A DNA stretch of 64,000 bases from Nonlabens dokdonensis DSW-6 (GTDB taxonomy: Bacteria; Bacteroidota; Bacteroidia; Flavobacteriales; Flavobacteriaceae): assembly GCF_000332115.1 (NCBI RefSeq), contig NC_020156.1, forward strand, positions 1,364,001 through 1,428,000. Reading direction: 5' to 3'. The first letter of the stretch is position 1; every line of letters starts with the position of its first letter. The notes beneath the pieces were generated by a model, which was given only the letters and a program-made list of their open reading frames with translations, had not been told where the DNA came from and ran no database searches. Below are positions 589 through 59,241 of this stretch, in pieces. A program made the translations under genes and the position numbers.

Positions 589-606
589 CCGCTTTCGCGA
601 AAGCGG
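589..606. repeat. TCGCGA palindrome, copy 1 (intergenic)
   Basis: Perfect 18-bp palindrome CCGCTTTCGCGAAAGCGG in the gap between two divergent genes. It is one of 15 full copies in the window. Confidence 0.95.
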
Positions 607-685
607 AAAAAACACCATCTTAAATGCCTAAAACAAGCTATTTACAAACAGTCATATATTTTTTAATGACTAAGTTTACACCGAA

Positions 686-3046
686 ATGAAACATCTATTC
701 TTATTTATTTTCCTACTGTTTTGTGTGCAAATCAATTTTGCTCAAAACACTTCCAATCAAAAGTCTCGTACTTCTAGTACTAGTATGGTGCTAGAAGGTC
801 AAGTACTTACTGAAAATGGCTCACCTATTTCTGGTATTAACGTTGAAGGCGCAATGGGTAGATATACCACTACTGATGTATTAGGGAGATTTAGTTTGCC
901 TGCAAATATGGGTGAAGAAGTCATCATAAGAGGACTTGATTTTGAGACGGTTTATTATCGTATTAATAGTGACGATGACATTATAATACGTGTTCAAAAT
1001 CAAGAAAAAGATGCCAAAGAGTTGAGCGCCCTAAGCTATCAAGTGGCGATGGACAGTGCTCAAGAATACCTAAGAATAGACGCAAAAAAAACTGCCGATT
1101 TCCTTATCGCAGCTCTTTCAAATAATCCCAAATCATTAACTAAAACTCAAGAGAGCGCAGCTTATGAAAAGTTAGGTGATTTGTACTTTTTTAATAAACA
1201 ATACGATCTTGCTGTTTCCAATTACCATCAAGCTGCTCAGCTTGTTTCTAATACAGAGCTTGTTGTAAAAAAGGCAGATGCTTTGCGATTAAATGGTAAT
1301 TATCAAGAAGCGATCACCGCATATTTAAACGTAGATTCTTCTTCCATAGGAAGGTCAAAATCATCAGGTAATAATAATTCTGTTGACTTGAAAATAAGGC
1401 GATGGACCGGTTTAGGAGATGCTTATGCAAAAACCAATCAGGGCGATCTAGCATTAGAAACTTATAAGAACGTCTTACTACTTGCTCAAAAAGAGAAACG
1501 TACTCAACAGGTAACATCTATCAATTCTAAAATTGCTAAACTCTTAAATGATCTCGGTAGAGAAGATGATGCTGAGGTTTATTTTGACCAGGCAATAATT
1601 GAATCAAAGAAGGAAAGTCCTATTGTTAACGCACAAATACAATCTCAAACAGCAGATTTTTATAACAGCAACTCTAGATTTGATGAAGAAATCGCCTTAC
1701 GTAAGAATAATATCAAGTTGTTGGACAGCATAAATTCTAAAGATAAACGCCTTCAAAATAGTACGAGTAAGCCATCAAGTACTTCAGGTTTCTTAAATAA
1801 TACTGATATAGATCTGTCAGAGTCAGAAATTGCAGTAAGCGACCTAGATGAAGAAGTCGTTTCAGAAGATACTGTCGTTGCAGCGCCAACTATGGCAGTA
1901 GATGACAATATGCTAATAGAAGGCCTTTCTAAACAAAAAGAACAACTCAAAATTGCCGAAGCTTTTAAAGCTCAAAACAAAATTAGTGATGCCATAACTT
2001 ATTACGAGTCCAGTCTAGAAGAAGCAACCACAAACAATGATCTTGAAGTAAAAAAAGATGCTGCAAAAAACCTTTATGAGCTCAATAAAAAAGCTGGGAA
2101 TACTAAAAAAGCATTGGACTATAATGAGTTATACATCAATACAGTCGATGCACTTTATCTGGAAAAAGAAAACGAGTTAGAAGCTACAGCAAGAAGAGCA
2201 AAAGAACTTGTAGCTAAACAGACTAGAATTTTAACTTTAGAAAAGGACCGCGAGCTTACAGAAAATAAGCTGGCATTAGTAAACACAGAGCGCGAGCTCA
2301 CACAAGAAATGAATCAGCGCCAGCGCTGGATCATTTATTCACTTGTAGCGCTTAGTTTGTTGCTTCTTACCCTTGCCTATTTTATGTATCGCAATAATAA
2401 ACAGCAAAAGATCAACAACCATTTGCTAGCTTTAAAATCATTGCGCAGCCAGATGAATCCGCATTTTATATTTAATGCCTTGAATTCTGTAAATAATTAT
2501 ATCGCTCAAAATGATGAACGTGCAGCAAATAAATACCTTGCCGATTTCTCAAAACTCATGCGTAGTGTTTTAGAGAATAGTGAGCTGGACTTTATTCCGC
2601 TAGAGAAAGAGATTGATCTTTTAGGTTTGTATTTAAAACTAGAACACGAGCGATTCAAGGATAAATTTGATTATACCTTAGAAATCGATCCTTCATTGCG
2701 AGATACTAAATTGCAAGTACCGCCTATGTTGTTGCAACCTATCATTGAAAATGCGGTATGGCATGGATTGCGTTATAAAGAAGAAAAAGGCTTTTTAGAT
2801 GTTGCTTTCGCGAAAGCGGAAAAAGGAATCCAAGTGACCATAACAGATAACGGTATCGGGAGAGAAAAGTCCAAAGCCATAAAAACGGAACATCAAAAGA
2901 AACGCGATTCTAAAGGTTTGGGTAATATTAAAAATAGGGTTGCCTTATTAAACGAGTTGCACGATTGCGAGATTGATATTAAGGTAACCGACGCCGGATT
3001 GAGTCCTGATGTGGGAACTACTGTAGTTGTGACCATCAAAAGTTAA
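686..3046 (+). CDS. TPR-containing LytS-type sensor histidine kinase
   Basis: Sensor of a two-component system, 786 aa. In order: a signal peptide (about 1-20), a carboxypeptidase-regulatory-like beta-sandwich (about 33-105), TPR helices (about 130-490), a charged coiled coil, one membrane segment (about 548-570), then a His_kinase domain with MNPHFIFNALNS around residue 590 (phospho-acceptor His 593) and an HATPase with N-box ENAVWHG and TDNGIG near 720. This layout suits a protein with a periplasmic TPR sensor and a cytoplasmic kinase. The cognate LytTR regulator follows 32 bp downstream. The TCGCGA palindrome inside the HATPase region is read as AFAKAE. The signal sensed is unknown. Confidence 0.9.
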   Translation: MKHLFLFIFLLFCVQINFAQNTSNQKSRTSSTSMVLEGQVLTENGSPISGINVEGAMGRYTTTDVLGRFSLPANMGEEVIIRGLDFETVYYRINSDDDIIIRVQNQEKDAKELSALSYQVAMDSAQEYLRIDAKKTADFLIAALSNNPKSLTKTQESAAYEKLGDLYFFNKQYDLAVSNYHQAAQLVSNTELVVKKADALRLNGNYQEAITAYLNVDSSSIGRSKSSGNNNSVDLKIRRWTGLGDAYAKTNQGDLALETYKNVLLLAQKEKRTQQVTSINSKIAKLLNDLGREDDAEVYFDQAIIESKKESPIVNAQIQSQTADFYNSNSRFDEEIALRKNNIKLLDSINSKDKRLQNSTSKPSSTSGFLNNTDIDLSESEIAVSDLDEEVVSEDTVVAAPTMAVDDNMLIEGLSKQKEQLKIAEAFKAQNKISDAITYYESSLEEATTNNDLEVKKDAAKNLYELNKKAGNTKKALDYNELYINTVDALYLEKENELEATARRAKELVAKQTRILTLEKDRELTENKLALVNTERELTQEMNQRQRWIIYSLVALSLLLLTLAYFMYRNNKQQKINNHLLALKSLRSQMNPHFIFNALNSVNNYIAQNDERAANKYLADFSKLMRSVLENSELDFIPLEKEIDLLGLYLKLEHERFKDKFDYTLEIDPSLRDTKLQVPPMLLQPIIENAVWHGLRYKEEKGFLDVAFAKAEKGIQVTITDNGIGREKSKAIKTEHQKKRDSKGLGNIKNRVALLNELHDCEIDIKVTDAGLSPDVGTTVVVTIKS
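2804..2817. repeat. TCGCGA palindrome, copy 2 (in kinase gene)
   Basis: GCTTTCGCGAAAGC inside the kinase HATPase domain, read in frame as AFAKAE just before the ITDNGIG motif. Confidence 0.95.
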
Positions 3047-3078
3047 TAGAATTCTTAAGCAGCTTATAAATTCAAAAT

Positions 3079-11324: not shown

Positions 11325-11807
11325 CTAAAACAACCCTTTCTCTGCCGTTTCAAAACCTTCATCTACAAGATGTTTACTTTTATCCAGCGCTGCATTAACA
11401 GCAAGAGCATCACATCTTTCATTTATGGGGTGATCGTTATGACCTTTGATCCATTGCATTTTAGGCTGTGTACGATTGTAGATTTTAATGAATCTTTTCC
11501 ACAAATCTGGATTTTTAACGTTTTTCCACTTGCGCTTGATCCATCCTGCAATCCAGTTTTTATTTACCGCATCACTTACGTAACGGCTGTCAGTAAAAAC
11601 AGTGATAGCAACTTCATGATCTGGTTTAATTTTTTCTAGCGCTTCAATTACCGCTAGTAGTTCCATACGATTGTTAGTTGTTTTGCGATATCCTTGAGAA
11701 AATTCTTTTTTAAACTTCTTACCTACCGCGACCATAACTATGCCATAACCACCTGGTCCAGGATTACCTCGAGAAGAACCGTCTGTATAAATATGTACTT
11801 GATCCAT
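11325..11807 (-). CDS. rnhA: Ribonuclease HI
   Basis: 160-aa endonuclease that degrades RNA in RNA:DNA hybrids. The catalytic carboxylates are visible: Asp in IYTDGSSRGNPGPGGYG (D9), Glu in NNRMELLAVIEAL, Asp in TVFTDSRYV and Asp in ERCDALA, plus the His of KGHNDHP. Length is typical for the single-domain enzyme. Its ATG overlaps the purN stop as TAATG, indicating a two-gene unit purN-rnhA. Confidence 0.97.
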   Translation of the reverse strand: MDQVHIYTDGSSRGNPGPGGYGIVMVAVGKKFKKEFSQGYRKTTNNRMELLAVIEALEKIKPDHEVAITVFTDSRYVSDAVNKNWIAGWIKRKWKNVKNPDLWKRFIKIYNRTQPKMQWIKGHNDHPINERCDALAVNAALDKSKHLVDEGFETAEKGLF

Positions 11808-12370
11808 TATTTTAAAAGTTCAGCAATGACTGTAGGATAATATTCATGTTCTAATTGATGGATTTTGCTCGCGAGATCTTCAGCAGTATCATTTTGATCA
11901 ATTTGACAAGTAGCTTGCTTAATGATCGCGCCTTCATCATAATTTTCATTTACATAATGTATGGTAATACCGCTTTTTTGTTCTTTATTTTCAATAACCG
12001 AGCGATGAACATTCATACCGTACATTCCTTTGCCACCATATTGAGGTAATAAAGCAGGATGAATGTTAATAATTTTATTAGGATGGTCTTCGATTAAAAA
12101 ACTTGGGATTTTCCATAAGAATCCTGCCAAAACGATCAAATCGGGCTGTTCTTGATTTAAAATAGATTGTATTTGTCCCGCTTTCGCGAAAGCGTACCTA
12201 TTAAAACTCATTGCAGGTATACCAGCTAGTCGTGCTCTTTCTAACACATATGCTTGAGGTTTATTAGATAAAATCAAAGAAATTTGCACTTCATTAGAAC
12301 TGTTATATCTATCTATAATAGCCTGAGCATTAGTACCATTACCGCTAGCTAAAATTACTATTTTCTTCAT
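11807..12370 (-). CDS. purN: Phosphoribosylglycinamide formyltransferase
   Basis: 187-aa folate-dependent GAR transformylase, third step of purine synthesis. It shows the phosphate-binding ILASGNGTNAQAII, the DLIVLAGFLWKIP strand, the catalytic Asn/His in INIHPALLPQYGGKGMYG, and the Asp in YDEGAII. It starts the purN-rnhA pair and is divergent from acpP. A TCGCGA palindrome at 12179-12194 encodes YAFAKAG in a surface region (about residues 59-65) outside the catalytic motifs. Confidence 0.96.
   Translation of the reverse strand: MKKIVILASGNGTNAQAIIDRYNSSNEVQISLILSNKPQAYVLERARLAGIPAMSFNRYAFAKAGQIQSILNQEQPDLIVLAGFLWKIPSFLIEDHPNKIINIHPALLPQYGGKGMYGMNVHRSVIENKEQKSGITIHYVNENYDEGAIIKQATCQIDQNDTAEDLASKIHQLEHEYYPTVIAELLK
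12179..12194. repeat. TCGCGA palindrome, copy 3 (in purN)
   Basis: CGCTTTCGCGAAAGCG read as AFAKA on the minus strand. Confidence 0.95.
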
Positions 12371-17736: not shown

Positions 17737-18825
17737 TTAGAACGAAAATCCTAACTGAACTTCAACAAAATCTTCTTCTTCCTCTTTTCCAGTATTTAAA
17801 TTACTAAGTGTAATGCCCAGTAGGCGTACGCTTTCGCGAAAACTTTCTTGCTCCATAAGCTCTATTGCAGTATTTAAAATTGTCTGCTTATCGCGTATGA
17901 AATACGGCAATGTTTTACTCCTAGTCTGAGTTTTAAAGTCTCGATATTTGATCTTAAGCGTGACTGTTTTACCAGATACATCAGATTTTGCAATGCGTTT
18001 TTCAATCTCTTCAGCAATTTGAATCAATCGCTCTTTCATGAAAACTTCGCTCGATATATTCTCAGAAAAAGTTCGTTCTGCACCTAGTGATTTTCTAATT
18101 CGATCTGGTTTTACAGGACTTTTATGAATACCTCTCACTATTTTATAATAATGACTACCACTCTTACCAAAATTCTCTACTAAAAATTCTAGAGACTTTC
18201 TTTTGAGATCCTTTCCTGTAAAAATGCCAAATTGGTACATTTTCTCTGCAGTAACTTTTCCTATGCCATGAAATTTGCGGATTTCTAGCTCTTCTAAAAA
18301 CTCAATAATTTCTTCGGGCACGATTGTTTTCTGGCCGTTAGGTTTGTTGTAATCGCTAGCTATTTTGGCAATAAATTTATTGACTGATATTCCTGCACTG
18401 GCAGTAATTCCTGTAGTCTCGTAAATGCGCCTTCTTATTTCATATGCAATAATCGTTGCGCTGGGGAAATCATACTTATTCTCTGTTACGTCTAGATAAG
18501 CTTCATCTAAGGAAAGCGGCTCTACAAGATCTGTATAATCATGAAAAATCTCTCTTATCTGCGCAGATACCTCTCGGTACCTATCAAATCTGGACTTGAC
18601 AAAGATGAGATCTGGACACAAACGTTTTGCCGTGACGCTAGGCATCGCACTACGCACGCCATATTTACGTGCTTCATAACTAGCCGCTGCCACAACACCA
18701 CGATCACTGCCGCCACCTACAGCAATTGGTTTACCGCGCAAGTCTGGATCATCATGCTGCTCTACAGATGCATAAAACGCATCCATATCTACATGTATAA
18801 TTTTTCTGTCTGCCAGTTCGTGCAT
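17737..18825 (-). CDS. dinB: DNA polymerase IV (Y family)
   Basis: 362-aa translesion polymerase. The catalytic carboxylates are in IIHVDMDAFYASVEQ and EPLSLDEAYLDVT, with the VVAAASYEARKYGVRSAMP finger motif, the helix-hairpin-helix thumb (FHGIGKVTAEKMYQFGI) and the little-finger domain. It ends LGFSF without an obvious extended clamp-binding peptide; QLGFSF may serve. A decayed TCGCGA palindrome (17832-17841) encodes SFRES near the C-terminus. It is divergent from the NAD(P)-binding gene by 56 bp. Confidence 0.96.
   Translation of the reverse strand: MHELADRKIIHVDMDAFYASVEQHDDPDLRGKPIAVGGGSDRGVVAAASYEARKYGVRSAMPSVTAKRLCPDLIFVKSRFDRYREVSAQIREIFHDYTDLVEPLSLDEAYLDVTENKYDFPSATIIAYEIRRRIYETTGITASAGISVNKFIAKIASDYNKPNGQKTIVPEEIIEFLEELEIRKFHGIGKVTAEKMYQFGIFTGKDLKRKSLEFLVENFGKSGSHYYKIVRGIHKSPVKPDRIRKSLGAERTFSENISSEVFMKERLIQIAEEIEKRIAKSDVSGKTVTLKIKYRDFKTQTRSKTLPYFIRDKQTILNTAIELMEQESFRESVRLLGITLSNLNTGKEEEEDFVEVQLGFSF
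17829..17843. repeat. Decayed TCGCGA palindrome (in dinB)
   Basis: CGCTTTCGCGAAAAC keeps the left arm and the TTTCGCGAAA core but has lost the right arm. Here it is read in the RFRES-type frame. Confidence 0.7.
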
Positions 18826-18881: not shown

Positions 18882-19556
18882 ATGGGTTTTACAGCAATTA
18901 TAATTGGCGCAACAGGTTTAACCGGTGGAGTTCTACTAGATCAGTTATTAGAAGATTCTAGATATGATAAGGTAGTTACGCTTTCGCGAAAGCGAATTGA
19001 AAACAATCACCCAAAACATAAAAATCACCTAGCTGATTTATTTGATCCTACAACCTATCAAGAGCAATTAAAAGGCGATCATTTATTTATTTGTACAGGA
19101 ACGACGCAAGCCAAAACACCTGATAAAGAAACCTATTATAAAATTGAACACGATTTACCGCTACAAGTTGCTGAAGTGGCTTTAAAAAATGGGGTAGAAA
19201 AAGTAGTTGCCATCTCTGCATTAGGTGCCAATCCAGATAGCCGCTTTATATACAATCGTGGCAAAGGAGCAATGGAACGAGACATAGAAGCATTAGGCTT
19301 TTCTGAATCCTATTTTGTACAGCCAGCTTTAATAGGTGGTGATCGAGAGGAAAAGAGAACCTTTGAAAGTGCTTGGAAAAAATTTCAAAAACTTATCGAT
19401 CCATTACTAATAGGATTTCTGAAAAAATACCGTACTATAGAGCCAGAAACCATTGCACAAGCGATGATTTATATAGCTGTAAATGGATATGAGAAAGTAA
19501 GAATTGAAAGTGATGAGTTAAAAACAGTAGCCAGTCGCAGTTTTAAGTCTCAGTAG
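18882..19556 (+). CDS. NAD(P)-binding oxidoreductase-like protein (TIP30/HTATIP2-like)
   Basis: 224-aa Rossmann-fold protein. It begins FTAIIIGATGLTGGVLLDQL, the dinucleotide-binding Gly-rich loop, followed by VVAISALGANPDSRFIYNRG and KGAMERDIEALGF, which resembles the Tyr-x3-Lys region of atypical short-chain dehydrogenases. The shape is close to the TIP30-like NAD(P)-binding group. The substrate cannot be told. The TCGCGA palindrome at 18979-18994 is read here as TLSRKR, directly after the second beta strand, unlike the AFAKA frame used in most genes. Confidence 0.8.
   Translation: MGFTAIIIGATGLTGGVLLDQLLEDSRYDKVVTLSRKRIENNHPKHKNHLADLFDPTTYQEQLKGDHLFICTGTTQAKTPDKETYYKIEHDLPLQVAEVALKNGVEKVVAISALGANPDSRFIYNRGKGAMERDIEALGFSESYFVQPALIGGDREEKRTFESAWKKFQKLIDPLLIGFLKKYRTIEPETIAQAMIYIAVNGYEKVRIESDELKTVASRSFKSQ
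18979..18994. repeat. TCGCGA palindrome, copy 4 (in NAD(P)-binding gene)
   Basis: CGCTTTCGCGAAAGCG read in the LSRKR frame. Confidence 0.95.
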
Positions 19557-22505: not shown

Positions 22506-24875
22506 TCACTCAAAAATCACATAAATCCGCACATCATTACCATCTTCATCAACTGCAGTAATTAATCGTTTTCCTTTTTTACCAGAAATGGCTAGTTCAT
22601 GAAAATTCTTGGTAGCTCCTAAAAACTCATCATCCATATACCAATAAACTTCTGTATCACTTTTTTTATGAGCGATTTCAAAAATGGCGCTGTTCAACTC
22701 GCCTTCCACATTTTTAGTTAAAGTAATTGTAGTATTGTGTTTTGGTTTTATAAAACGCATTACATCATCTGTGTAAGGCACACAATCTGCTCTGTAATCT
22801 GGTAATGGTTGGTAACTAGGGTTGGCTCTTGAATAATAGTAGGACATCACTGGCGGCAAAGTAAACCACGACTGTGTAATTATTTGTGATGCTGGCTCGC
22901 AGTCGGCATTTACTTGATAGGTTTTTGTAGCGTCTAGATTAATGGCTTTATGGTACGGACACGACGCATATTTCTCACCTACGACAGGAATATATTGGTT
23001 GATAGCTTCACATAATGGCGTGGCGAGATAACCAGACTGCTTACAAGTTTGTACTTCTAGCATATCGTCATAAGGTGGCGCAAACCATTGTTGTGCGGGC
23101 AATCGATTGAATAAATCAAAAAGTACCGGTGCTGCGCTGTCTATTCCAGTCATTTCTGCACGTCCTTCTCCGTCGGCATTTCCTGTCCAGACGCCTATGA
23201 TGTATTTTGGTGTAACGCCTATCGCCCATGCATCTCGATTTCCAAAACTCGTTCCTGTTTTCCAGGCGATTTCTCTATCAGGATTAAAGAAGTGCCAGAT
23301 TTCCTCGCCTTCTGGTCGGTTTACCTTTTTCATCGCTTCAAATGTGTGGTAAATGCTTCCTGCACCATAGATGGATGGTTCTAAAGACCAGCTTATTTCT
23401 TTATTGTTTGATGGTTGTTCCGCTTTCGCGAAAGCGAGATCCACACTATTATCGAGATAACTCAACCTATTCATAATCTCCGGATCGTACTGACTGCTGT
23501 TGTCTGTGTAAAGTTCTAAGGTTTTAGCCATTCCTAAATAGGCGCGGCTCATGTCCCAAAGGCTGCTCTCGCCACCGCCAATTATCAAACTCAATCCGTA
23601 AGTTCCTGCGCCGCGATTAAGATGAGAAAGTTTTAGATCTTGTAACTTATTATAAAATCGTGGTACCGTATGTTCTCGTAGCAGTCGCACCGCAGGAACA
23701 TTTAAAGACCTGGATAAAGCTTGCGATGCAGGAATTGCTCCTGTGTATTTCTTATCATAATTTTCTGTAGAAAATCCGTCAATTATGGTAGGCGTATCTT
23801 TTACAAGACTGTGCGGCAACAATTCTCCATCTTCCAGCATCGCAGCATATAAGAAAGGCTTTAGAACACTGCCTGTAGACCGCGGTGCAGTGATAATATC
23901 TACATCTTTACTATGTTCTCTAGTAGTAGGTGCGTTTCCTACGTAAGCGGCAACGGTTTGGGATTCTACGTCCAGAACCAGCATGGCAAGGTTGTTCACA
24001 CCGTTTTGCTGCAAGATTCTATGATGATTTTTTACAATACGATTCACCGTTTCTTGCATCTCATAATCAATACTGGTGCGTAGTTTTTTGGTACCGTATT
24101 CCTTGTTAGCTCTTTGTAATAAATGTGGCGCCAGTTGCGGTACTCTAAAATCTTGAGTCGGCACGTTTTCAGAAATAGCGAGTTCGTAATCCATTTCTGT
24201 AATAATGTTTTCTTCTTTTAATTTGAGTAAGACTTGATCACGTTTTTCTTTAAGTAGACTTTCTCGTTTTCCAGGATAGACCAATCCTGGCGCATTAGGT
24301 AAAACGGCAAGCGTAGCACTTTCTGCCCAACTTAATTCGTGAGGTTTTCTACCAAAATAACGCCACGCCGCCATATCCAGACCAATAACATTACCACCAT
24401 AAGGAGCATGACTGGCATAGAGTTCAAGAATCTCTTCTTTAGAAAGCCGAAACTCCAATCGTGTCGCCCAAATCAGCTCTATAAATTTCTCGTAGTATTT
24501 ACGTTCTTTCTTACGCGCTAGCCGGATCACTTGTTGTGTAATCGTACTTCCACCACGTACTACTTTCCCAGCCGAAATATTATCTGCCAGGGCTTTCCCT
24601 ATAGAAACTGGATTGAATCCTGGATGACTGTAAAAATGTGCATCTTCATATTGCAACAGACTTTGTTTGTACCGGTAAGGAACAGAGTCTACTGCAGGGA
24701 AACGCCACTGTTCATCTCTAGCAATATGTGCATCGAGCAGCCTGCCATCCTTACTTTCTATTACTGTAGAATAAGGAACATCAAATAGTTTTTCTGGTAA
24801 ACATACCACATACCAAACGAGTAGAACCGTTAAGACGCTGAGTTTGATCTTATGTTTAAAAAGAAATTTTTTCAA
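22506..24875 (-). CDS. pbpC: Penicillin-binding protein 1C
   Basis: 789-aa bifunctional peptidoglycan enzyme. An N-terminal membrane anchor (about 10-27) is followed by a glycosyltransferase domain with the catalytic Glu in YEDAHFYSHPGFNPVSIGKA and RGGSTITQQVIRLARK. The transpeptidase has SxxK in STGSVLKPFLY, SRSLN and KTGTSFGNRDAWAIG. The C-terminal BiPBP-type domain (about 690-789) is present. The start appears to be TTG at 24875: a stop lies two codons upstream and no ATG occurs early in the frame. A TCGCGA palindrome encodes LAFAKAEQPS in the transpeptidase domain, away from its catalytic motifs. Confidence 0.95.
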   Translation of the reverse strand: MKKFLFKHKIKLSVLTVLLVWYVVCLPEKLFDVPYSTVIESKDGRLLDAHIARDEQWRFPAVDSVPYRYKQSLLQYEDAHFYSHPGFNPVSIGKALADNISAGKVVRGGSTITQQVIRLARKKERKYYEKFIELIWATRLEFRLSKEEILELYASHAPYGGNVIGLDMAAWRYFGRKPHELSWAESATLAVLPNAPGLVYPGKRESLLKEKRDQVLLKLKEENIITEMDYELAISENVPTQDFRVPQLAPHLLQRANKEYGTKKLRTSIDYEMQETVNRIVKNHHRILQQNGVNNLAMLVLDVESQTVAAYVGNAPTTREHSKDVDIITAPRSTGSVLKPFLYAAMLEDGELLPHSLVKDTPTIIDGFSTENYDKKYTGAIPASQALSRSLNVPAVRLLREHTVPRFYNKLQDLKLSHLNRGAGTYGLSLIIGGGESSLWDMSRAYLGMAKTLELYTDNSSQYDPEIMNRLSYLDNSVDLAFAKAEQPSNNKEISWSLEPSIYGAGSIYHTFEAMKKVNRPEGEEIWHFFNPDREIAWKTGTSFGNRDAWAIGVTPKYIIGVWTGNADGEGRAEMTGIDSAAPVLFDLFNRLPAQQWFAPPYDDMLEVQTCKQSGYLATPLCEAINQYIPVVGEKYASCPYHKAINLDATKTYQVNADCEPASQIITQSWFTLPPVMSYYYSRANPSYQPLPDYRADCVPYTDDVMRFIKPKHNTTITLTKNVEGELNSAIFEIAHKKSDTEVYWYMDDEFLGATKNFHELAISGKKGKRLITAVDEDGNDVRIYVIFE
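23421..23436. repeat. TCGCGA palindrome, copy 5 (in pbpC)
   Basis: CGCTTTCGCGAAAGCG read as AFAKA on the minus strand. Confidence 0.95.
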
Positions 24876-38715: not shown

Positions 38716-41127
38716 CTAGAACCCTTTTGTTTTTTTACCAGTACGCTCTTGTTCTTCTGGAGTCTCAGTGCTGCGATTTTCAAGCCTAAAGTTTCCAAAT
38801 TTATAAGTGAATCCTAAACTGAATAATTGAGTTTCAAGTAAGCTCAACTCTATATTATCTTGATTTTGATACCTAGAAACAAACGGTTGATTTGCAGAAA
38901 GGAAAATATCACTATAACTAGCAGTAAACACAGCTCTTTTGTCCCATAAAGTTTTAGAGAACCCTATACGGCTAGTGAATAAGTTCTCGTATTTATAAGT
39001 ACCGAAAAGTATGCTGGAAAGATAAGTGGCGCTTATCGTCATGTCTAAACTACCATCTTCTGATAAATTAATAAGGTTATTAGTATCAACATAATATCCT
39101 GTGGTGTTGGTTTGTTGCACCCTGCTGGCAGACTGTAGTGCATCAACTTCATTCTCCATATAAAATGCTCCAAACGTTGTGCTGGTGAGCCAGCTCTCAT
39201 TTAAGTAATTATAAAATGTTGCATCTACACTATATTGAAATTCATAATTTAAGTTTATAGACCTTAAAATCAGTGTGTTGGTATCATTATTCTGGAACGA
39301 TATACTATTTATCATATCATTTGTGTTGATATAATATACATCAACAAATAGCTGGTTTTTATAATTCCAGCCTAAGTTAATTTTGTCAGTAAAAGCAGGA
39401 ACTAAATCTGGTGCTCCAGTGCTTACAATATTATCGTTTGTAAAATTGTTAAATGGATTCAAATCTCCAGAACCAGGTCTGTCTATGGATCTTTTATAAC
39501 TTAAGGTCAAATCATTACTATCATTTAAAATATGATTGATAGATAAATTAGGAAAAACACCTAGGTAGTTTTGATTATTTACTAGACCTAAAGACTGACT
39601 ATCACCTTTAACATCTGTCTGTTCTAATCGCAATCCTGCAATGAATCCCCATTTAGTCCAATCTCTTGAAACCTGCGTATAAGCTGCATAAATACGCTCA
39701 TCGTACAAATATGTATCAGATAATGATGGGTCTATGATAGCACCCATGTCTGTATCTAAAAAATCTTGATCGCTTTTATTTGATATACTAGTAAACTTTA
39801 ATCCTGAAACAAAATTATAAGAACCAAACACATCCTCATAATCTATTTTCCCTGTAAAAATATCGGCTTCTTGAATCCCATTAGTTCTAAAGCTGTTTGT
39901 TCCAGTAGTCGTTTGAGTGTCATCAAAAAATACACTTGAAAAGTTTTGATTATTGTCGGTATCAGTAAATATATAAGTTCCTTCAACACTTAAAAAGCCA
40001 CCATTATCATTAAGAATTCTCTGCCAACTTAGGTTCATATGTCCACTTGAGTAATCTTGTTCTGTTTTAGAGTTTGTATCAAAACCACTGAAAGTTGTTG
40101 CTCCTTGAGGTAAAATTAATGTATTTACATCGTTATCTATTTTTTTGCCATTGTTTATTCCTAAATACCCCATGAAGGACAAAGTGTTTTTTTCATCGAG
40201 TGTAATATCTATAATACTGTTAAAGGCATGAGCATCACTTCTAGACACGGACTCTACATCTGTAAACCAACGAGAGTTTCTAGAACCATCACTATTAAAA
40301 AAACCTACCTCGGACTCTTGCAGCGTTAAATCTTTACGTGGATTATAATTGTAATTCGCATAAACATTAATCCAGTCGTTCTTATAGGAATGTCCAGTCC
40401 CTAATTGATATTTTGCAAATGTATCTACTGACCAATTACTAGTTACTAAGCCTTTATAACCTAAAGAGATGCTTTTACTTGTTATAATATTAATTACTGC
40501 GCCGCCATCTGCATCGTAGCGAGCTGGTGGATTAAAAATTACTTCAACGCTTTTTACATTATCGCCACTATAACCTCTTAGTAATTGTTGCAACTCTTCG
40601 TCACTTAAAAAAACTCTCTTATTGTTAATGTAAACCTGAGCGACACTACCTTTTACCATATAAGAGCCATTCATTTCAAAAACTCCTGGGGTAGATTGTA
40701 AAATTTGAGACGTGTTCCCTGTACTTAGCGAGCTGTTTTCAACGTTAAAAATTAATCTATCAGCTTTTCGCTGTATAGTAGGTCGTGCCGCATTTACTAC
40801 AACAGCATCTAGTTCTTCTTGATTTGCATTTAAAACAACAGCTCCTATGTCTGTAGATTTATTAAGTGTTAGCTTTCGCGAAAGCGGAACATAACCAACT
40901 GATGATACTTGCAATGTATAATCACCAGCAGCACAATTTGCTATCTTAAACTTCCCTTTTTCATCAGAATAAGATGCTTTATAGAACACACTATCGGGCA
41001 TTTTAAATAACACAACATTACTGTAAGCTAGTGGCTCTTCACTATTATTAATAATAGTTCCTGTAAGATCGTTTTGTGCAGTCGTACTAAGAGCTAGGAT
41101 AAAGATAAAAAACTGTAAATATTTCAT
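38716..41127 (-). CDS. TonB-receptor-like outer-membrane beta-barrel protein
   Basis: 803 aa. Signal peptide, then a carboxypeptidase-regulatory-like domain (about 18-100; DLTGTIINNSEEPLAYSNVV), a plug-like domain (about 115-220; VNAARPTIQRKADRLIFNVE), and a large barrel with repeated amphipathic strands ending GFTYKFGNFRLENRSTE. It matches the OMP_b-brl_3 type of outer-membrane receptor. No TonB box is seen and no SusD partner is next to it, so the cargo is unknown. The palindrome at 40872-40885 encodes PLSRKLTLN in the N-terminal domain. Confidence 0.88.
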   Translation of the reverse strand: MKYLQFFIFILALSTTAQNDLTGTIINNSEEPLAYSNVVLFKMPDSVFYKASYSDEKGKFKIANCAAGDYTLQVSSVGYVPLSRKLTLNKSTDIGAVVLNANQEELDAVVVNAARPTIQRKADRLIFNVENSSLSTGNTSQILQSTPGVFEMNGSYMVKGSVAQVYINNKRVFLSDEELQQLLRGYSGDNVKSVEVIFNPPARYDADGGAVINIITSKSISLGYKGLVTSNWSVDTFAKYQLGTGHSYKNDWINVYANYNYNPRKDLTLQESEVGFFNSDGSRNSRWFTDVESVSRSDAHAFNSIIDITLDEKNTLSFMGYLGINNGKKIDNDVNTLILPQGATTFSGFDTNSKTEQDYSSGHMNLSWQRILNDNGGFLSVEGTYIFTDTDNNQNFSSVFFDDTQTTTGTNSFRTNGIQEADIFTGKIDYEDVFGSYNFVSGLKFTSISNKSDQDFLDTDMGAIIDPSLSDTYLYDERIYAAYTQVSRDWTKWGFIAGLRLEQTDVKGDSQSLGLVNNQNYLGVFPNLSINHILNDSNDLTLSYKRSIDRPGSGDLNPFNNFTNDNIVSTGAPDLVPAFTDKINLGWNYKNQLFVDVYYINTNDMINSISFQNNDTNTLILRSINLNYEFQYSVDATFYNYLNESWLTSTTFGAFYMENEVDALQSASRVQQTNTTGYYVDTNNLINLSEDGSLDMTISATYLSSILFGTYKYENLFTSRIGFSKTLWDKRAVFTASYSDIFLSANQPFVSRYQNQDNIELSLLETQLFSLGFTYKFGNFRLENRSTETPEEQERTGKKTKGF
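40872..40885. repeat. TCGCGA palindrome, copy 9 (in receptor gene)
   Basis: GCTTTCGCGAAAGC read in the LSRK frame on the minus strand. Confidence 0.95.
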
Positions 41128-43018: not shown

Positions 43019-43852
43019 TTAGTACCTCAAAAAATTAATCATACACTGCACGGCTTGTCTTAAATCTTCTGGCAACCGATCTTGATGCCATGGATGTGAT
43101 GCGCCCAAAACATGGTTTGCATCCCTGATCAATTTCAGTTGAGAGTTAGGACTTGCCTTATGCAGTTTATGCGCATCATTTACATGAACTGCTTCGTCGT
43201 TATCTCCATGAAGAATTAAGTGTGGTTGAGTGATTTTTTGAGCTTGTTTCAAGATGGTTAAATCTTCTTCATTATTTTTAAAGTCTTCAAAAAACTGATA
43301 TAAATGCGGCATATCCTGTCCGGTACGACCATTTTTAACGTGCATGACTCCTTTTTCTTTCCACTCTTCAAGTGCTTTCCCTGACGGGAAACGCTCTGCA
43401 TAGTCAGCTACTCCTGCTAGGGTGATTAACTTAGAAACTCTGCTATCATTTGCAGTAACTATGGTGGTGATTCCGCCGGCTCTGGAATGGCCTATTAAAT
43501 TAATTTTTGTTTTATCGATAGGTAATTGTGAGCTCTCGATCCAATCCAAAACTAATTTTGTTTCTCGTACTTCCATGCTGTAATTATTCTTTGAGAAAGC
43601 ATCTAGATCTGGAAAATCGATAGGCTCTTCTACCGTACCACCATTGTGTGAATAGTTAAACTTTATGAATAGAAATCCCGCTTTCGCGAAAGCGGAACCC
43701 ATTAAACTCCACGCACCCCAATCTTTAAATCCTTTATAACCATGGCAAAAAACCACAACTGGTAATTGCTGGTCAGATTCTAGATATTGATAATCAAGTA
43801 AAATAGCTCGATTATTTTCTCCTTTCAAAACATTGTTGTTACTCGTAATCAT
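43019..43852 (-). CDS. Alpha/beta hydrolase
   Basis: 277 aa. VVVFCHGYKGFKDWG holds the oxyanion-hole HG motif, INLIGHSRAGGI the nucleophile Ser, HLILHGDNDEAVHV the acid, and RDANHVLGASHPW the His. The length fits the S9/dienelactone-type hydrolases. Substrate unknown. Its ATG overlaps the nuclease gene stop by 4 bp (ATGA). The palindrome encodes GSAFAKAGFLF early in the protein, between the first two strands. Confidence 0.88.
   Translation of the reverse strand: MITSNNNVLKGENNRAILLDYQYLESDQQLPVVVFCHGYKGFKDWGAWSLMGSAFAKAGFLFIKFNYSHNGGTVEEPIDFPDLDAFSKNNYSMEVRETKLVLDWIESSQLPIDKTKINLIGHSRAGGITTIVTANDSRVSKLITLAGVADYAERFPSGKALEEWKEKGVMHVKNGRTGQDMPHLYQFFEDFKNNEEDLTILKQAQKITQPHLILHGDNDEAVHVNDAHKLHKASPNSQLKLIRDANHVLGASHPWHQDRLPEDLRQAVQCMINFLRY
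43678..43695. repeat. TCGCGA palindrome, copy 10 (in hydrolase gene)
   Basis: CCGCTTTCGCGAAAGCGG, perfect over 18 bp, read as AFAKA on the minus strand. Confidence 0.95.
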
Positions 43853-46575
43853 ACTGGTTTTTCTATGAGGTCAATTTCTTTATTATATAATTCTTGAATC
43901 AAAGCAAAAAGCTCTTGTTCAAACTTTTCTAATACCGCTGCATCGATCATTTTTTCATTGTATCGATGCTTGCCGTAAGAAAACGGAATATAGCCTTGAT
44001 CAAAGTTCTTAAAACTAATGATTCCTGCGCTAGCTTCTGTGAACGGATCGTTAAGACTGTGCAAATAAGTGTACATGAGCACTTGAAATGCTTTGGCCTT
44101 TTTGTAGTCTTCTCTAAGAATAGTAAAGTCATCTGGATCGATACCTACGTTACCTTTATCAGTCGCGCCTGATTTGTAATCAATGATACGCAATTTACCG
44201 TCCAGCTGGTCGATGCGATCTACCATACCGTGGATTTTCACCTTCCCTATTTGCGATACATCGATAACAGCCTCCAGCTTGCGCTCGACACTTTTGATGA
44301 TTAATTCTTGATCGTTTTTAACGAGTTCTAAATCACTTTCTACCATTTTCTTTATGTAGTGTAAAGAAACTTCGTAAATGATCTTATTCTTACCTAATGG
44401 AGCAGAATCTGAGGTATAACATTCTTTATAAGCGATGTCTAATTCTGTCTTAATTTGCTTCTTTATCGTGTCAAAATCTTCTTTGATCAAAATCTTACCT
44501 ACAAAAGGCTGATACAATTTATCAAGCGCCTCATGAATGATGGAACCCATAGTATTTGCAGCGATGTTTTCTTCTACATCTTCCATGTCTGAAATACGTA
44601 ATATCTTGCTCGCGTAAAAATCGATTGGGTTGCGCACATAACTGGTCAATGCCGATGGACTAAAACCGCTTGCTGCTATTTGATCCAGTCGTTCAAAATA
44701 AGATGGTTCTTTTTTAATGATCATCAACTCGTCTTTAATGGCACTATTTTTAAAAATATAGTGTTTGTGAGTGACGATGTGATTACAATTTTGATCTGTT
44801 TCTAGTTGAGTCAAGAATCGGCTTTTCTCGCCGCCGCCTAATGTATCACCTTCTGTATTGTAAATAAAAGCAGCCTTCTCTACTCGATGCAACAATCTAT
44901 AAAAGTGATAGGCATAAACGCTGTCTTTCTCTGAATAAGTAGGAAGCTCAAACTGATATTTCATATCATTTGAAATATAGGAAGCCGTAGATTTACCAGC
45001 AGGCAAAATACCTTCATTTACTGAAAGCATGATGGTATTTTTATAATCTAAAGCCCGCGTTTCTAGCAATCCCATAATTTGAAGACCGCGCACTGGTTCA
45101 CCTATAAAATCAAGATTCTTAAGAGGCACAAGTTGTTTATATAAATAAGCTACAGTTTTTAAATCTTTAATTTCTTGATTATTATCAATAATGGTTGCTA
45201 GGTTTTGAACAACTTCAGTGATGCCTAGCAATTGCTCGATTTCTAATCGTCTATTTTCCTCATTAAAAAGAGCTTTTTTTAACTCATTAAGTAAATACTG
45301 AACTAACTCGATAAGCGCTCCTACCGTTTCCACTGGTTTTAAAATAGTGTTTAATAAATCGATTTCAGTCACTTCTTCAAAACTAGAAGGCGTGATATAT
45401 ATCAGGTTGTTTTCTCTTATAAACTTTATTAATTGACGTGATTTCTCTGCGATTAACAAGTGTGCAAAACTAGATTCTAAAATATTTACAACTCCTTTGT
45501 AATAATACTCTCTATCAATAGCGTCTGTATGCATTTTAATAACATCATAGATAAAAGCAGATAGCGGCAATTGATCGAGTGCCAGTCCCATGGTTACATT
45601 AAAATGCTGGATGTTTTGTGGAATAGCGTCTAGTAATGGTAATAGCAATCGCTCATCTGCAAGAATGACTGCGGTATCTTCTAATTCTTCTTGAGGTATT
45701 TGCGCCATTAATTGTGCAGCCACCTGTATCATACTCAAGTTACCTGCTGCACCGTGTATGTCTATTTTTTTCGCTGATTGATAGAAATTACTGTAAATAT
45801 CTAATTCCCTATTGTTATAATATTTCCATTCTTTTTTAAACCTGCGTATAAACTTTCCAGATTCATGATAAGGTAATTCCATCAAATAGGAATCCATATC
45901 CCAGTAAACATGTCCTTTTTCTTCTTCAAGTAGCTTCTGTATGATCTTAGACTCCGCCGTATTGAGTGCATTTAGTCCCAAAAATATGGTGGTTTCCACT
46001 TGATTTGAAGTGAAGGATCGTTGTTCCGCTTTCGCGAAAGCGAGCCTATAAGCCATCCCTTGATACACCATTTTATTCTCCAAACATAATTTTTGAAAAG
46101 CGTCGTAATACAGATGGAGTTTCTTCCAAAACCTTAAGTATTTTGATACCATCAAGGTAGGATTTTGACTCAACGCCCAGTGATCCATTTCTTTGATACT
46201 TCCCAAATAATTGAAAAACTGTTCTGGATCTACTAAATAGCGATCCATTTCATTAAAGTCTTTAAGGATAGTAGTCGCCCAGCCTATAAACTCATCAAAG
46301 CTATCTAGATTTTCTCCATTTTCAACACTTTTATAGGCTTGATAAAATAAAGGCAAAAGGTCTAGATCGTTTACAATCTCTACTTGGGACAGATGTTCTA
46401 TATATTCTTCTACACTATAAATTTTAGGTAAGAAAATAGGTTGATCAATACGTTGTGCAACATATCTACTTAGGAAAATTCCAACACGTCGCGATGGAAC
46501 TACGTAGTTTACTTTAGTAATATCTATTTGCTTCTTCTCGAGATCAATTAGGATGTTTTCTAAAAATGAATTCAT
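43849..46575 (-). CDS. PD-(D/E)XK nuclease, AddB-like
   Basis: 908 aa. The N-terminal two thirds resemble the inactivated helicase fold of AddB (NYVVPSRRVGIFLSRYV, VYWDMDSYLM, GLLETRALDYKNTIMLSVNEG). The C-terminal nuclease has FSPSALTSYVRNPIDFYASK, MGSIIHEALDKLY, and the active-site RIDQLDGKLRIIDYKSGA. The four-cysteine iron-sulfur motif of classical AddB is not apparent. It probably helps process DNA ends for recombination. The AddA helicase partner is not in this window. The TCGCGA palindrome encodes RLAFAKAEQRS at about 185. Confidence 0.85.
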   Translation of the reverse strand: MNSFLENILIDLEKKQIDITKVNYVVPSRRVGIFLSRYVAQRIDQPIFLPKIYSVEEYIEHLSQVEIVNDLDLLPLFYQAYKSVENGENLDSFDEFIGWATTILKDFNEMDRYLVDPEQFFNYLGSIKEMDHWALSQNPTLMVSKYLRFWKKLHLYYDAFQKLCLENKMVYQGMAYRLAFAKAEQRSFTSNQVETTIFLGLNALNTAESKIIQKLLEEEKGHVYWDMDSYLMELPYHESGKFIRRFKKEWKYYNNRELDIYSNFYQSAKKIDIHGAAGNLSMIQVAAQLMAQIPQEELEDTAVILADERLLLPLLDAIPQNIQHFNVTMGLALDQLPLSAFIYDVIKMHTDAIDREYYYKGVVNILESSFAHLLIAEKSRQLIKFIRENNLIYITPSSFEEVTEIDLLNTILKPVETVGALIELVQYLLNELKKALFNEENRRLEIEQLLGITEVVQNLATIIDNNQEIKDLKTVAYLYKQLVPLKNLDFIGEPVRGLQIMGLLETRALDYKNTIMLSVNEGILPAGKSTASYISNDMKYQFELPTYSEKDSVYAYHFYRLLHRVEKAAFIYNTEGDTLGGGEKSRFLTQLETDQNCNHIVTHKHYIFKNSAIKDELMIIKKEPSYFERLDQIAASGFSPSALTSYVRNPIDFYASKILRISDMEDVEENIAANTMGSIIHEALDKLYQPFVGKILIKEDFDTIKKQIKTELDIAYKECYTSDSAPLGKNKIIYEVSLHYIKKMVESDLELVKNDQELIIKSVERKLEAVIDVSQIGKVKIHGMVDRIDQLDGKLRIIDYKSGATDKGNVGIDPDDFTILREDYKKAKAFQVLMYTYLHSLNDPFTEASAGIISFKNFDQGYIPFSYGKHRYNEKMIDAAVLEKFEQELFALIQELYNKEIDLIEKPV
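46027..46042. repeat. TCGCGA palindrome, copy 11 (in AddB-like gene)
   Basis: CGCTTTCGCGAAAGCG read as AFAKA on the minus strand. Confidence 0.95.
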
Positions 46576-49601: not shown

Positions 49602-49617
49602 CGCTTTCGCGAAAGCG
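49602..49617. repeat. TCGCGA palindrome, copy 12 (intergenic)
   Basis: CGCTTTCGCGAAAGCG, 90 bp upstream of the PorP/SprF start and 133 bp past the end of the preceding gene. Confidence 0.95.
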
Positions 49618-53784: not shown

Positions 53785-54540
53785 ATGATGCACATCCATT
53801 ATAATCTTAGTGATAATAAAAAACCTGTCCTTCTATTAATTCATGGTTTTTTAGGGAGTATGCAACAATGGGAGCATATAGAGCATCAACTGCTTGTGCA
53901 CTACTCTATTTTAAAGATTGATTTACCAGGTCATGGATCAAGCCATGAATCTAAGACACCATTTACCGCAGCAGATTTTATCGAAGCCTTAAACTTTATA
54001 TTAAAGCAGGAACATATAGATAGACTTACTATACTAGGTCATAGTATGGGTGGATATTTAGGTGCCGCTTTCGCGAAAGCGAATCCTAAAAAAATTATAT
54101 CGCTTATTATGTTGAATAGTATTGCTGGAAAAGATCCTAAAGAAAAAAGACTTCTTAGAGACAGAGCCATACAACTCATTCAAAAGCATAAGGAAGCTTA
54201 CGTGAGCATGGCGGTAAATAACTTGTTTACTAAAGTTGAATTAGAAGAGTTTAAGGAGCGAATTCATAAAATGAAGATGAAAGCACAAACTATCTCGATA
54301 GAAAGTATTGTTCATTCCTTACTATACATGCGAGATAGAGAAAGTTCATTACAAGAATTGAAAAATCTAGATATCAGGGTTATTTACATCTTCAGTTTAC
54401 AAGATGATATTATAGAACCAGCGCTCATCAAAACGGAATGCGATTATTTAAATATTCAAGGAAAAACAATTGATTGCGGACACATGTCATTGTTAACAAA
54501 CCCTGCTAATATTCTAGAAAAAATGTATTTCATCGAATAA
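53785..54540 (+). CDS. Alpha/beta hydrolase (MenH/YbfF-like)
   Basis: 251 aa. VLLLIHGFLGSMQQWEHI, LPGHGSSHES, LTILGHSMGGYLGAAFAKA with the nucleophile Ser, a cap-type helical insert, IYIFSLQDDIIEP (Asp) and IDCGHMSLLTNP (His) complete the catalytic set. The length and GHG/SMGG loops fit the MenH-like group, but no menaquinone genes are adjacent. A TCGCGA palindrome encodes AFAKANPKK, directly after the nucleophile elbow helix. Confidence 0.87.
   Translation: MMHIHYNLSDNKKPVLLLIHGFLGSMQQWEHIEHQLLVHYSILKIDLPGHGSSHESKTPFTAADFIEALNFILKQEHIDRLTILGHSMGGYLGAAFAKANPKKIISLIMLNSIAGKDPKEKRLLRDRAIQLIQKHKEAYVSMAVNNLFTKVELEEFKERIHKMKMKAQTISIESIVHSLLYMRDRESSLQELKNLDIRVIYIFSLQDDIIEPALIKTECDYLNIQGKTIDCGHMSLLTNPANILEKMYFIE
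54066..54081. repeat. TCGCGA palindrome, copy 13 (in hydrolase gene)
   Basis: CGCTTTCGCGAAAGCG read as AFAKA. Confidence 0.95.
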
Positions 54541-56441: not shown

Positions 56442-56458
56442 GGAGATTTTATAAATAA

Positions 56459-56474
56459 CGCTTTCGCGAAAGCG
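56459..56474. repeat. TCGCGA palindrome, copy 14 (15 nt before sufB)
   Basis: CGCTTTCGCGAAAGCG in the sufA-sufB gap, followed by 15 AT-rich bases and the sufB ATG. Same spacing as the copy before sufD. Confidence 0.95.
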
Positions 56475-56489
56475 TAATTAAAAAAAATT

Positions 56490-57938: not shown

Positions 57939-57968
57939 TATCAAATTTTATCAAACAACATTTTGATT

Positions 57969-58409: not shown

Positions 58410-58414
58410 CAGAT

Positions 58415-59167
58415 ATGTTAAAAATTAAAGATCTTCAAGCAAATATAGAAGGGAAAGAAATCTTAAGAGGTATTAATCTAGAAGTTAATGCTGGCGAGGT
58501 GCACGCAATAATGGGACCTAACGGTTCTGGTAAATCTACTCTAGCAAATGTTATCGCTGGACGAGAAGAATATGAAATTACCGGTGGAGAAATTTCATTA
58601 GAAGGTGAGGACATAGAAGATTTAGATCCAGAGGAAAGAGCTCATAGAGGTGTTTTTCTCTCTTTTCAATATCCTGTAGAAATTCCTGGAGTATCAGTTA
58701 CAAACTTCATGAAAACTGCCATTAATGAAACGCGCAAAGCTCAAGGTAAAGATGACATGGCCGCAAAGGACATGCTTAAAATGATACGTGAGAAATCTGA
58801 GCTACTAGAAATAGATCGCAAATTCCTTTCTAGATCACTTAATGAAGGGTTTTCTGGTGGAGAGAAAAAACGTAACGAGATTTTTCAAATGGCCATGTTA
58901 GAGCCTAAACTTGCTATACTAGATGAAACTGACTCTGGTCTAGACATTGATGCATTGCGCATCGTTGCAAATGGCGTAAATAAACTTAAGACTAAGGATA
59001 ACGCAACTATAGTAATCACTCACTACCAGCGCCTTCTCGATTATATTGTTCCAGATTACGTACACGTACTATATAATGGTCGTATCGTTAAATCTGGTGG
59101 CAAAGAACTGGCACAAGAGTTAGAGAAACGTGGTTATGACTGGATCAAAGAAGAAGTAGAGGCTTAA
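58415..59167 (+). CDS. sufC: Fe-S cluster assembly ATPase SufC
   Basis: 250-aa ABC-type ATPase that energises the SufBCD scaffold. Walker A GPNGSGKSTLANVIAG, the Q-loop in VFLSFQYPVEIPGVS, the signature FSGGEKKRNEIFQM, Walker B plus D-loop LAILDETDSGLDIDAL, and the switch His in VITHYQRLL are all present. LDETDSGLD is typical of SufC rather than transporter ATPases. It starts 5 bp after the lipoprotein gene. Confidence 0.97.
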   Translation: MLKIKDLQANIEGKEILRGINLEVNAGEVHAIMGPNGSGKSTLANVIAGREEYEITGGEISLEGEDIEDLDPEERAHRGVFLSFQYPVEIPGVSVTNFMKTAINETRKAQGKDDMAAKDMLKMIREKSELLEIDRKFLSRSLNEGFSGGEKKRNEIFQMAMLEPKLAILDETDSGLDIDALRIVANGVNKLKTKDNATIVITHYQRLLDYIVPDYVHVLYNGRIVKSGGKELAQELEKRGYDWIKEEVEA

Positions 59168-59225
59168 GAACACTATAATTTTCTAGCTATACTGCTGTCC
59201 CTTATTATAAATGAACTTTTTAGTT

Positions 59226-59241
59226 CGCTTTCGCGAAAGCG
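59226..59241. repeat. TCGCGA palindrome, copy 15 (15 nt before sufD)
   Basis: CGCTTTCGCGAAAGCG in the sufC-sufD gap, followed by 15 AT-rich bases and the sufD ATG. Confidence 0.95.

What the first reader, a model, noticed from the sequence alone, without database searches (positions are those of the whole stretch)
589..59241. A 14-18 bp TCGCGA palindrome occurs 15 times and is mostly translated as AFAKA
GCTTTCGCGAAAGC occurs at 589, 2804, 12179, 18979, 23421, 27008, 29777, 34472, 40872, 43678, 46027, 49602, 54066, 56459 and 59226. Chance expectation for one given 14-mer in 64 kb is far below one. Eleven copies are in genes, on both strands and in unrelated families; nine are read in the same frame (A-F-A-K-A) and two as LSRK. 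They avoid catalytic motifs and often sit in linkers. This recalls the HIP1 palindrome of cyanobacteria. The role (replication, repair, methylation, nucleoid binding) is open.
Basis: partly seen in the sequence, partly recalled or inferred. Interest (0 to 1): 0.75.

Follow-up and report, generated by a model that had tools for sequence, protein, structure and literature searches.

The report
Evenly spaced genome-wide palindrome in Nonlabens
An exact 14-16 bp palindrome is repeated about 860 times, roughly every 4 kb, through the chromosome of a marine bacterium (genus Nonlabens) and, mostly at other places, through Dokdonia; it is kept for a DNA reason and not a protein reason, and points to an undescribed chromosome-wide binding-site system whose reader is unknown.

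Summary
The window has 15 exact GCTTTCGCGAAAGC; the 3.91-Mb genome has 857. All 22 same-genus genomes searched (288-787), all 18 Dokdonia-genus genomes searched (369-905) and one genome of a third genus (408) are full of it. The rest of 397 family genomes have 0-19; 394 other phylum-sampled genomes at most 6. Near-copies are rare. Copies lie in all frames, are about 6-fold denser outside ORFs, and carry a symmetric flank preference (~50 bp overall) without arm covariation: a dimer-like duplex site, not a peptide, hairpin or insertion. They arise by substitution; at 79% identity 47 of 78 aligned copies stay exact (control 5.4%), 46 of 47 in reverse. Four of 331 intervals are under 1 kb (63 expected). 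Dokdonia copies mostly sit elsewhere. ParB, RecC-type Chi, pilus-type uptake and short-motif methylation were tested, some indirectly, and not supported. Best reading: sites of an unidentified dimeric reader that organises or marks the chromosome; the function is inferred.

The parts
591..604 (.). palindrome copy, outside ORFs
   Evidence: ORFs
2804..2817 (.). palindrome copy, AFAKA frame of a histidine-kinase gene (686-3046 +)
12180..12193 (.). palindrome copy, AFAKA frame of a formyltransferase gene (11807-12370 -)
17830..17843 (.). only near-copy in the window (one mismatch, GCTTTCGCGAAAAC), inside ORF 17737-18825 (-)
18980..18993 (.). palindrome copy, LSRK frame of an epimerase-like gene (18882-19556 +)
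23422..23435 (.). palindrome copy, AFAKA frame of a penicillin-binding-protein (transglycosylase/transpeptidase) gene (22506-24875 -)
27009..27022 (.). palindrome copy, AFAKA frame of an M28 peptidase gene (26306-28723 -)
29777..29790 (.). palindrome copy, AFAKA frame of a flavin-reductase-like gene (29042-29893 +)
34473..34486 (.). palindrome copy, AFAKA frame of an M1 peptidase gene (34238-36223 -)
40872..40885 (.). palindrome copy, LSRK frame of an outer-membrane beta-barrel gene (38716-41127 -)
43680..43693 (.). palindrome copy, AFAKA frame of an alpha/beta-hydrolase gene (43019-43852 -); exact in 9 of 19 same-genus loci with an unbroken alignment, base-substituted in 10; the alignment of a 20th locus (L316) breaks inside the site
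46028..46041 (.). palindrome copy, AFAKA frame of an AddB-like PD-(D/E)XK nuclease gene (43849-46575 -); exact in 11 of 14 same-genus loci aligned there
49603..49616 (.). palindrome copy, intergenic
54067..54080 (.). palindrome copy, AFAKA frame of ORF 53785-54540 (+)
56460..56473 (.). palindrome copy, intergenic, just upstream of sufB (56490 +)
59227..59240 (.). palindrome copy, intergenic, just upstream of sufD (59257 +)

Best explanation
The palindromes are binding sites for one dedicated, still unidentified sequence-specific DNA-binding protein that acts as a symmetric dimer (core CGCTTTCGCGAAAGCG, footprint about 50 bp, T/G-rich 5' and A/C-rich 3' of the core on each strand). Selection acts on the DNA: it keeps one exact site about every 4 kb along the chromosome, wherever it costs least (between genes, or in genes where AFAKA, LSRK or FRES is tolerated). 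Sites arise by point substitution, are kept for long times, and decay where upkeep weakens (relative G004). The most likely job is chromosome-wide: organising or marking the cell's own DNA for nucleoid structure, or for a DNA repair/recombination machine. Shown: exactness, lack of close neighbours, similar density in four sampled stretches (1.6 of 3.9 Mb) including the presumed origin region and its opposite, positional conservation in the genus, substitution origin, frame independence, lack of arm covariation, lineage restriction, mostly different positions in Dokdonia (small sample). Inferred: the reader protein, its dimeric form, and the function.
For: Genome count 857 against 0 for the reversed control; within two mismatches 956 (control 15), so 99 near-copies. 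In 1.6 Mb: 335 exact, 32 one-mismatch, 10 two-mismatch. Spacing, 331 intervals: 4 under 1 kb against 63.1 in random placement (lowest of 2000: 44); CV of the 327 intervals under 15 kb 0.50 against 0.85 with the same truncation (lowest 0.75). Dokdonia G439 (first 100 listed sites): CV 0.74, 4 under 1 kb against 22.7; Nonlabens G003 (61 listed sites): CV 0.68, 4 against 14.5; CV reached in 1 of 2000 simulations each. Density outside gaps over 15 kb: 1/4.0 kb near parS and 1/4.8 kb opposite. 0.79 per kb outside ORFs against 0.135 inside, with little difference by gene orientation. Broadly the same flank preferences in non-genic and genic copies; arms do not covary. 47 of 78 aligned copies exact in G004 against 123 of 2262 GC-matched 14-mers, one gap in 78; 46 of 47 aligned G004 copies exact in the own genome. 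Dokdonia: 1 of 14 genic copies at the homologous position against 8 of 13 for other Nonlabens loci (Fisher p 0.004). G004 has more near-copies (16 one-mismatch per 55 exact against 32 per 335, p 0.0016).
Against: No reader protein was found; gene presence/absence could not be screened without bias. If the long gaps are kept in, the CV of all 331 intervals is 1.16, because of a 91-kb gap and three others over 15 kb; so evenness holds between gaps. Two isolated Nonlabens phages have 0 copies, whereas some viral contigs of unknown host have up to about 1 per 5 kb, which a purely chromosomal role does not predict unless these are temperate. Even spacing and retention are also expected under uptake drive. 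Flank preference at some positions is weaker in the FRES and LSRK frames (for example T at -10: 37% and 49% against 82% in AFAKA).
Confidence: 0.5

Rival explanations
1. DNA uptake sequence: cells preferentially take up DNA with the palindrome, and transformation drives it through the genome.
For: Accumulation by substitution, position independence, lack of close neighbours, flank preferences and absence from a 91-kb NRPS/PKS region fit uptake drive. Weak sign of more copies in shared DNA: in the own 1.22-1.62 Mb stretch 78 of 94 copies fall in parts aligned to one 0.4-Mb stretch of G004. Self-preferring transformation is reported in the same family for Riemerella columbina (PMC7965970, passages).
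Against: The pilus/type II secretion ATPase PF00437 passes its cut-off in only 3 of 13 Nonlabens tested, not in this genome, G250 or G234; the three with it do not have more copies. DUS and USS are not palindromic (recalled). Viral contigs carry copies.
Confidence: 0.2
2. Chi-like signal: a bidirectional (palindromic) site that tells a recombination nuclease-helicase to stop degrading and load RecA, so that self DNA is spared.
For: Density (1 per 4.57 kb) is like that of Chi in E. coli (recalled); T/G-rich DNA lies 5' of the core on each strand; some viral contigs carry copies, while two isolated phages without copies are annotated with their own ERF and YqaJ recombination genes.
Against: RecC (PF04257), which reads Chi in E. 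coli (recalled), is absent from all 19 copy-rich genomes tested. A 14-16 bp symmetric core with symmetric flanks is unlike any Chi that I know (5-8 nt, asymmetric; recalled). AddAB was not tested.
Confidence: 0.15
3. HIP1-like: an orphan methyltransferase recognises part of the palindrome, and methylation-directed repair creates and maintains it.
For: It is a highly iterated palindrome in genes and confined to lineages, as HIPs are (PMC4390886). Outside exact copies, longer parts are enriched (TTTCGCGAAA 12 against 2.3, CGAAAGCG 29 against 9-12), though near-copies probably account for this.
Against: Short sub-palindromes outside exact copies are not enriched: CGCG 1052 observed against 1492 expected, TCGCGA 93 against 111-120. 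Of 32 one-mismatch copies 7 are C-to-T or G-to-A at the CpG bases, as many as T-to-C at one other base. I know of no methyltransferase that reads 14-16 contiguous bases (recalled).
Confidence: 0.07
4. A mobile or selfish short element that inserts into DNA.
For: Very uniform copies, and copies in an island shared across genera.
Against: Orthologs without the palindrome show substitutions at the same place: 1 of 78 aligned copies has a gap. 46 of 47 aligned G004 copies are shared. No larger repeated unit; flanks are degenerate preferences.
Confidence: 0.02
5. A conserved peptide (AFAKA) or codon usage produces the repeat.
For: 89 of 154 genic copies read AFAKA, some in signal-peptide-like starts.
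Against: Three frames, genes on both strands, unrelated families; 143 of 335 copies are not wholly inside ORFs, which leave 11% of bases free.
Confidence: 0.01

Closest known systems
HIP1 and alternate HIPs of cyanobacteria
   Same: Palindrome iterated genome-wide, inside genes, lineage-restricted, role unsettled (PMC4390886, abstract and section 14 part 1).
   Different: 14-16 bp with ~50-bp flank preferences against the 5-8 bp HIPs named there; about 219 per Mb against 1000-2000 per Mb; no enriched short sub-palindrome; different phylum.
DNA uptake sequences of Neisseriaceae and Pasteurellaceae (DUS/USS)
   Same: Over-representation that falls steeply from exact to one-mismatch copies and gradual origin by point mutation (PMC1939737, passages).
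   Different: Palindromic; no pilus-type ATPase in most copy-rich genomes tested; no comparable 12-14 bp palindrome in 20 kb from each of 20 other family genomes.
parS/ParB and Noc sites (Noc recalled)
   Same: 14-16 bp palindrome with TTTC/GAAA arms, a dimer-bound site on the chromosome.
   Different: These genomes keep two ordinary parS and ParB is not multiplied; copies here are about 860 and have another core spacing.
matS/MatP and SlmA sites (chromosome-organising palindromes; recalled)
   Same: 12-13 bp palindromes, also inside genes, read by a dimeric protein.
   Different: Tens of regionally biased sites against about 860 at similar density near the presumed origin and opposite it.
Chi of RecBCD/AddAB (recalled)
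   Same: Similar density and genome-wide spread.
   Different: Symmetric, about twice as long; RecC absent.

Membership tests
HIP1-type sequence | GCGATCGC or alternate 5-8 bp GC-rich palindrome | tested here: not met
   Unit is GCTTTCGCGAAAGC; CGCG and TCGCGA not enriched outside it
HIP1-type sequence | about 1000-2000 copies per Mb | tested here: not met
   857 per 3.91 Mb; HIP range from PMC4390886
HIP1-type sequence | cognate orphan methyltransferase in the genome | not tested
   no methyltransferase family was searched
DNA uptake sequence | massive over-representation with steep fall at one mismatch | tested here: met
   335 exact, 32 one-mismatch, 10 two-mismatch in 1.6 Mb
DNA uptake sequence | pilus-type uptake ATPase present | tested here: not met
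   PF00437 over cut-off in 3 of 13 Nonlabens and 0 of 2 other copy-rich genomes tested; 6 of 40 genomes in all
DNA uptake sequence | preferential uptake of DNA that carries it | not testable with these tools
   needs an assay
parS (ParB) | palindrome replaces parS or goes with an extra ParB | tested here: not met
   canonical parS, two in each of the 15 copy-rich genomes and two or three in 25 controls; one ParB match in 13 of 15 copy-rich genomes, two in G014 and G019
Chi read by RecBCD | RecC present | tested here: not met
   PF04257 in 1 of 60 genomes, none of the 19 copy-rich
Chi (any) | arrests and switches the recombination nuclease | not testable with these tools
   needs biochemistry
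Inserted element (REP/MITE) | presence/absence as insertion at empty sites | tested here: not met
   1 gap in 78 aligned copies
Stem-loop RNA or cruciform element | compensatory pairing of the arms beyond the core | tested here: not met
   observed complementarity close to expected at all 27 flank positions, 335 copies

The most novel reading that the evidence does not exclude
Nonlabens, Dokdonia and at least one more genus share an undescribed chromosome-addressing system: an acquired dimeric reader protein plus roughly 300-900 evenly spread exact sites with a ~50-bp footprint that built up by substitution at mostly different positions in each genus, are also carried by some viruses, and mark or organise self DNA. 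Lineage G004 is a natural case of the system weakening or being lost.
Probability: 0.45. Interest if true: 0.92.

Novelty: new variant of a known kind. Interest (0 to 1): 0.8.

Why it matters
A 14-16 bp exact sequence held at hundreds of spread-out places by selection implies a strong, genome-wide, sequence-specific process, and the four known explanations tested here (ParB, RecC, pilus ATPase, short-motif methylation) do not account for it. That would make a long-standing question (why some genomes carry highly iterated palindromes) testable in marine bacteria. The palindrome may also trace DNA that has passed through these genera (metal-efflux islands, viruses); that use is an inference.

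Tried and rejected
Peptide or codon-usage origin: rejected. Hairpin, terminator or cruciform: arms do not covary, and intergenic copies show little preference for convergent, divergent or same-strand gaps (1.00, 0.84, 0.68 and 0.92 per kb). Insertion: rejected. ParB as reader: not supported. RecC-type Chi: not supported. Other 'dialects' in relatives: in 20 kb from each of 20 other family genomes no 12- or 14-mer palindrome occurs three times (only runs of N in L384) and no 10-mer palindrome does so at over 20 times expectation; two 8-mer palindromes pass that mark (L377, L381) and non-palindromic repeats occur in L372, L377, L381, L383, L384 and L391. One own 20-kb stretch (L352) showed nothing either, so a single sample can miss the signal. 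A mobile-element origin of the 933-bp spaced pairs in other genera: they lie in a heavy-metal efflux island, not in a repeat of their own. A tree of the three copy-rich genera was not made; RpoC identity to the own protein is 83-84% for G234 and four Dokdonia-genus genomes and 78-85% for the other genera tested, so a clade is neither shown nor excluded. Print: in the open-licence PMC library found no paper on this palindrome; the ten papers holding TTTCGCGAAA were judged incidental from the listing alone. Subscription papers and preprints were not searched.
Full report
Observation. The window holds 15 exact GCTTTCGCGAAAGC against none in 100 shuffles, one single-mismatch copy, and none with two or three mismatches. 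Eleven copies are in ORFs (nine AFAKA, two LSRK) and four are not. The genes are unrelated: histidine kinase, formyltransferase, epimerase, penicillin-binding protein, M28 and M1 peptidases, flavin reductase, outer-membrane barrel, hydrolase, AddB-like nuclease (one more ORF was not searched).

Genome and lineage. The window lies at 1,364,001-1,428,000 of a single 3,914,632-bp contig with 857 copies; the reversed pattern has none. All 22 same-genus genomes searched have 288-787 copies; of 13 other-genus genomes of the family 12 have none and one has six; 23 genomes of other families have none. In 397 family genomes (237 genera), hundreds of copies occur only in the own genus, G250 (857) and G234 (408); everything else has 19 or fewer. 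G250's first contig has the length of a named Dokdonia sinensis contig, and all 18 genomes searched of its genus have 369-905. In 395 phylum-wide genomes nothing but the own genome exceeds six (no other genome of the own genus or of G250's genus was drawn).

Anatomy. C precedes and G follows the core in 92% (252 copies, arms pooled). Further preferences peak at 4, 10 and 12-13 bases outside the core and fade around 18, giving about 50 bp overall (335 copies); 5' of the core each strand is T/G-rich and C-poor. Non-genic copies and genic copies show broadly the same preferences, weaker at some positions in the FRES and LSRK frames, so they are DNA-level. Arms do not covary, so the palindrome is better read as a symmetric duplex than as a hairpin. 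Dokdonia loci show the same core with a somewhat different inner flank (T at -3, A at -2; 76 copies, most of them from loci chosen by the 16-mer).

Exactness and placement. Genome-wide 99 places differ from the core by one or two bases, against 857 exact (reversed control 15). Density is 0.79 per kb outside ORFs and 0.135 inside (simple ORF caller, copies not wholly inside an ORF counted as outside). Of 331 intervals 4 are under 1 kb against 63.1 in random placement (lowest of 2000: 44). The 327 intervals under 15 kb have CV 0.50 against 0.85 in random placement cut the same way (lowest 0.75); with the four longer gaps kept in, the CV is 1.16. The largest gap, 91 kb, contains NRPS and PKS genes (two ORFs tested; others by size). 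Density is similar near the presumed origin (two parS at 1.526-1.528 Mb) and opposite to it. Two relatives also show few close pairs.

Evolution. Against G004 (78.7% identity over 267 kb), 78 own copies were aligned with 20-base flanks (of 252 in the sampled 1.2 Mb; the others had no full alignment to the 0.4 Mb of G004 held): 47 exact, 30 substituted, 1 with a gap; GC-matched control 14-mers are identical in 123 of 2262, all 14-mers in 2140 of 38161. In the core the least conserved bases are the sixth and ninth (0.82), third codon positions in the AFAKA frame. In the other direction 46 of 47 aligned G004 copies (of 55) are exact in the own genome. At window site 46028, 10 of 10 far relatives keep the exact site and 3 of 4 loci of G004's group (L302-L305) do not; at 43680, 8 of 14 far relatives with an unbroken alignment keep it and 4 of 4 of G004's group do not. 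G004 has three times as many near-copies per exact copy. Upkeep thus looks weaker in that group; the direction of change is inferred. Dokdonia copies are at the homologous place in 1 of 14 comparable cases (of 55 genic copies examined), other Nonlabens in 8 of 13 (of 35); taking only matches of at least 45% amino-acid identity, 1 of 9 against 7 of 9. The matches are best hits in 1.2 Mb, not proven orthologs. So sites are kept in place within the genus but were mostly gained, or turned over, separately between genera.

Elsewhere. Low-copy genera often carry the palindrome in a shared heavy-metal efflux island (RND pump, outer-membrane factor, metal P-type ATPases, Fur-like regulator), where the outer-membrane factor starts with a signal-like SAFAKAQ; one island site (8364 of L169) stays exact in six of the seven further homologs aligned there. 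Two isolated Nonlabens phages have none in 71 kb (15.6 expected at the host's mean density). Viral contigs of unknown host carry copies: seven in the pieces held of a 37-kb contig and four of a 30-kb contig, both with head or tail genes, and five in a 27-kb contig whose only searched gene is a DnaG-type primase. Whether these viruses are temperate is not known.

Reader and function. Tested and not supported: ParB, RecC, pilus-type uptake ATPase, and, indirectly, short-motif methylation. Not tested: methyltransferase gene content, long-read modification, AddAB, any binding. I commit to a dimeric reader with a chromosome-wide role as the best explanation, with uptake and Chi-like action as the main rivals; the function step is inference. 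Compared with known systems it works most like a chromosome-organising palindrome (matS, Noc sites; recalled) scaled up to the whole genome, and resembles HIP1 as a phenomenon without meeting the defining features tested.

Noticed in passing
G000:C1:131700-222900 (L015-L020): 91-kb stretch without any palindrome, with NRPS and PKS genes (two ORFs tested by Pfam); two ORFs (201498-207575 and 207877-213981) start with the same 30 residues.
   Followed up: partly
L169-L182 (several genomes of other genera): A heavy-metal efflux island shared across Flavobacteriaceae at about 64-97% identity by segment carries the palindrome; a pair exactly 933 bp apart is listed in G122, G131, G145, G259 and G204 (the last seen by spacing only).
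   Followed up: partly
   Followed up: partly
G000:C1:1525833 and 1527726, and 39 other genomes: All 40 genomes tested have two or three parS matches; listed Nonlabens sites mostly read GTTTCACGTGAAAC, most listed sites of other genera GTTCCACGTGGAAC.
   Followed up: no
G085:C159:33059-34000 (L438): RecC-like gene in one Flavobacteriaceae genome, absent from the 59 others tested.
   Followed up: no
L391 (G220), L383 (G390), L377 (G259): Other repeated 10-mers (for example CATGCTGAGG six times in 20 kb), perhaps repeat elements or gene repeats.
   Followed up: no
window 8573-10447 (-): A 624-aa ORF without any NCBIfam match at E 0.001.
   Followed up: no
window 43849-46575 (-): AddB-like PD-(D/E)XK nuclease, well below the curated AddB cut-off, carries one of the palindromes.
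   Followed up: partly
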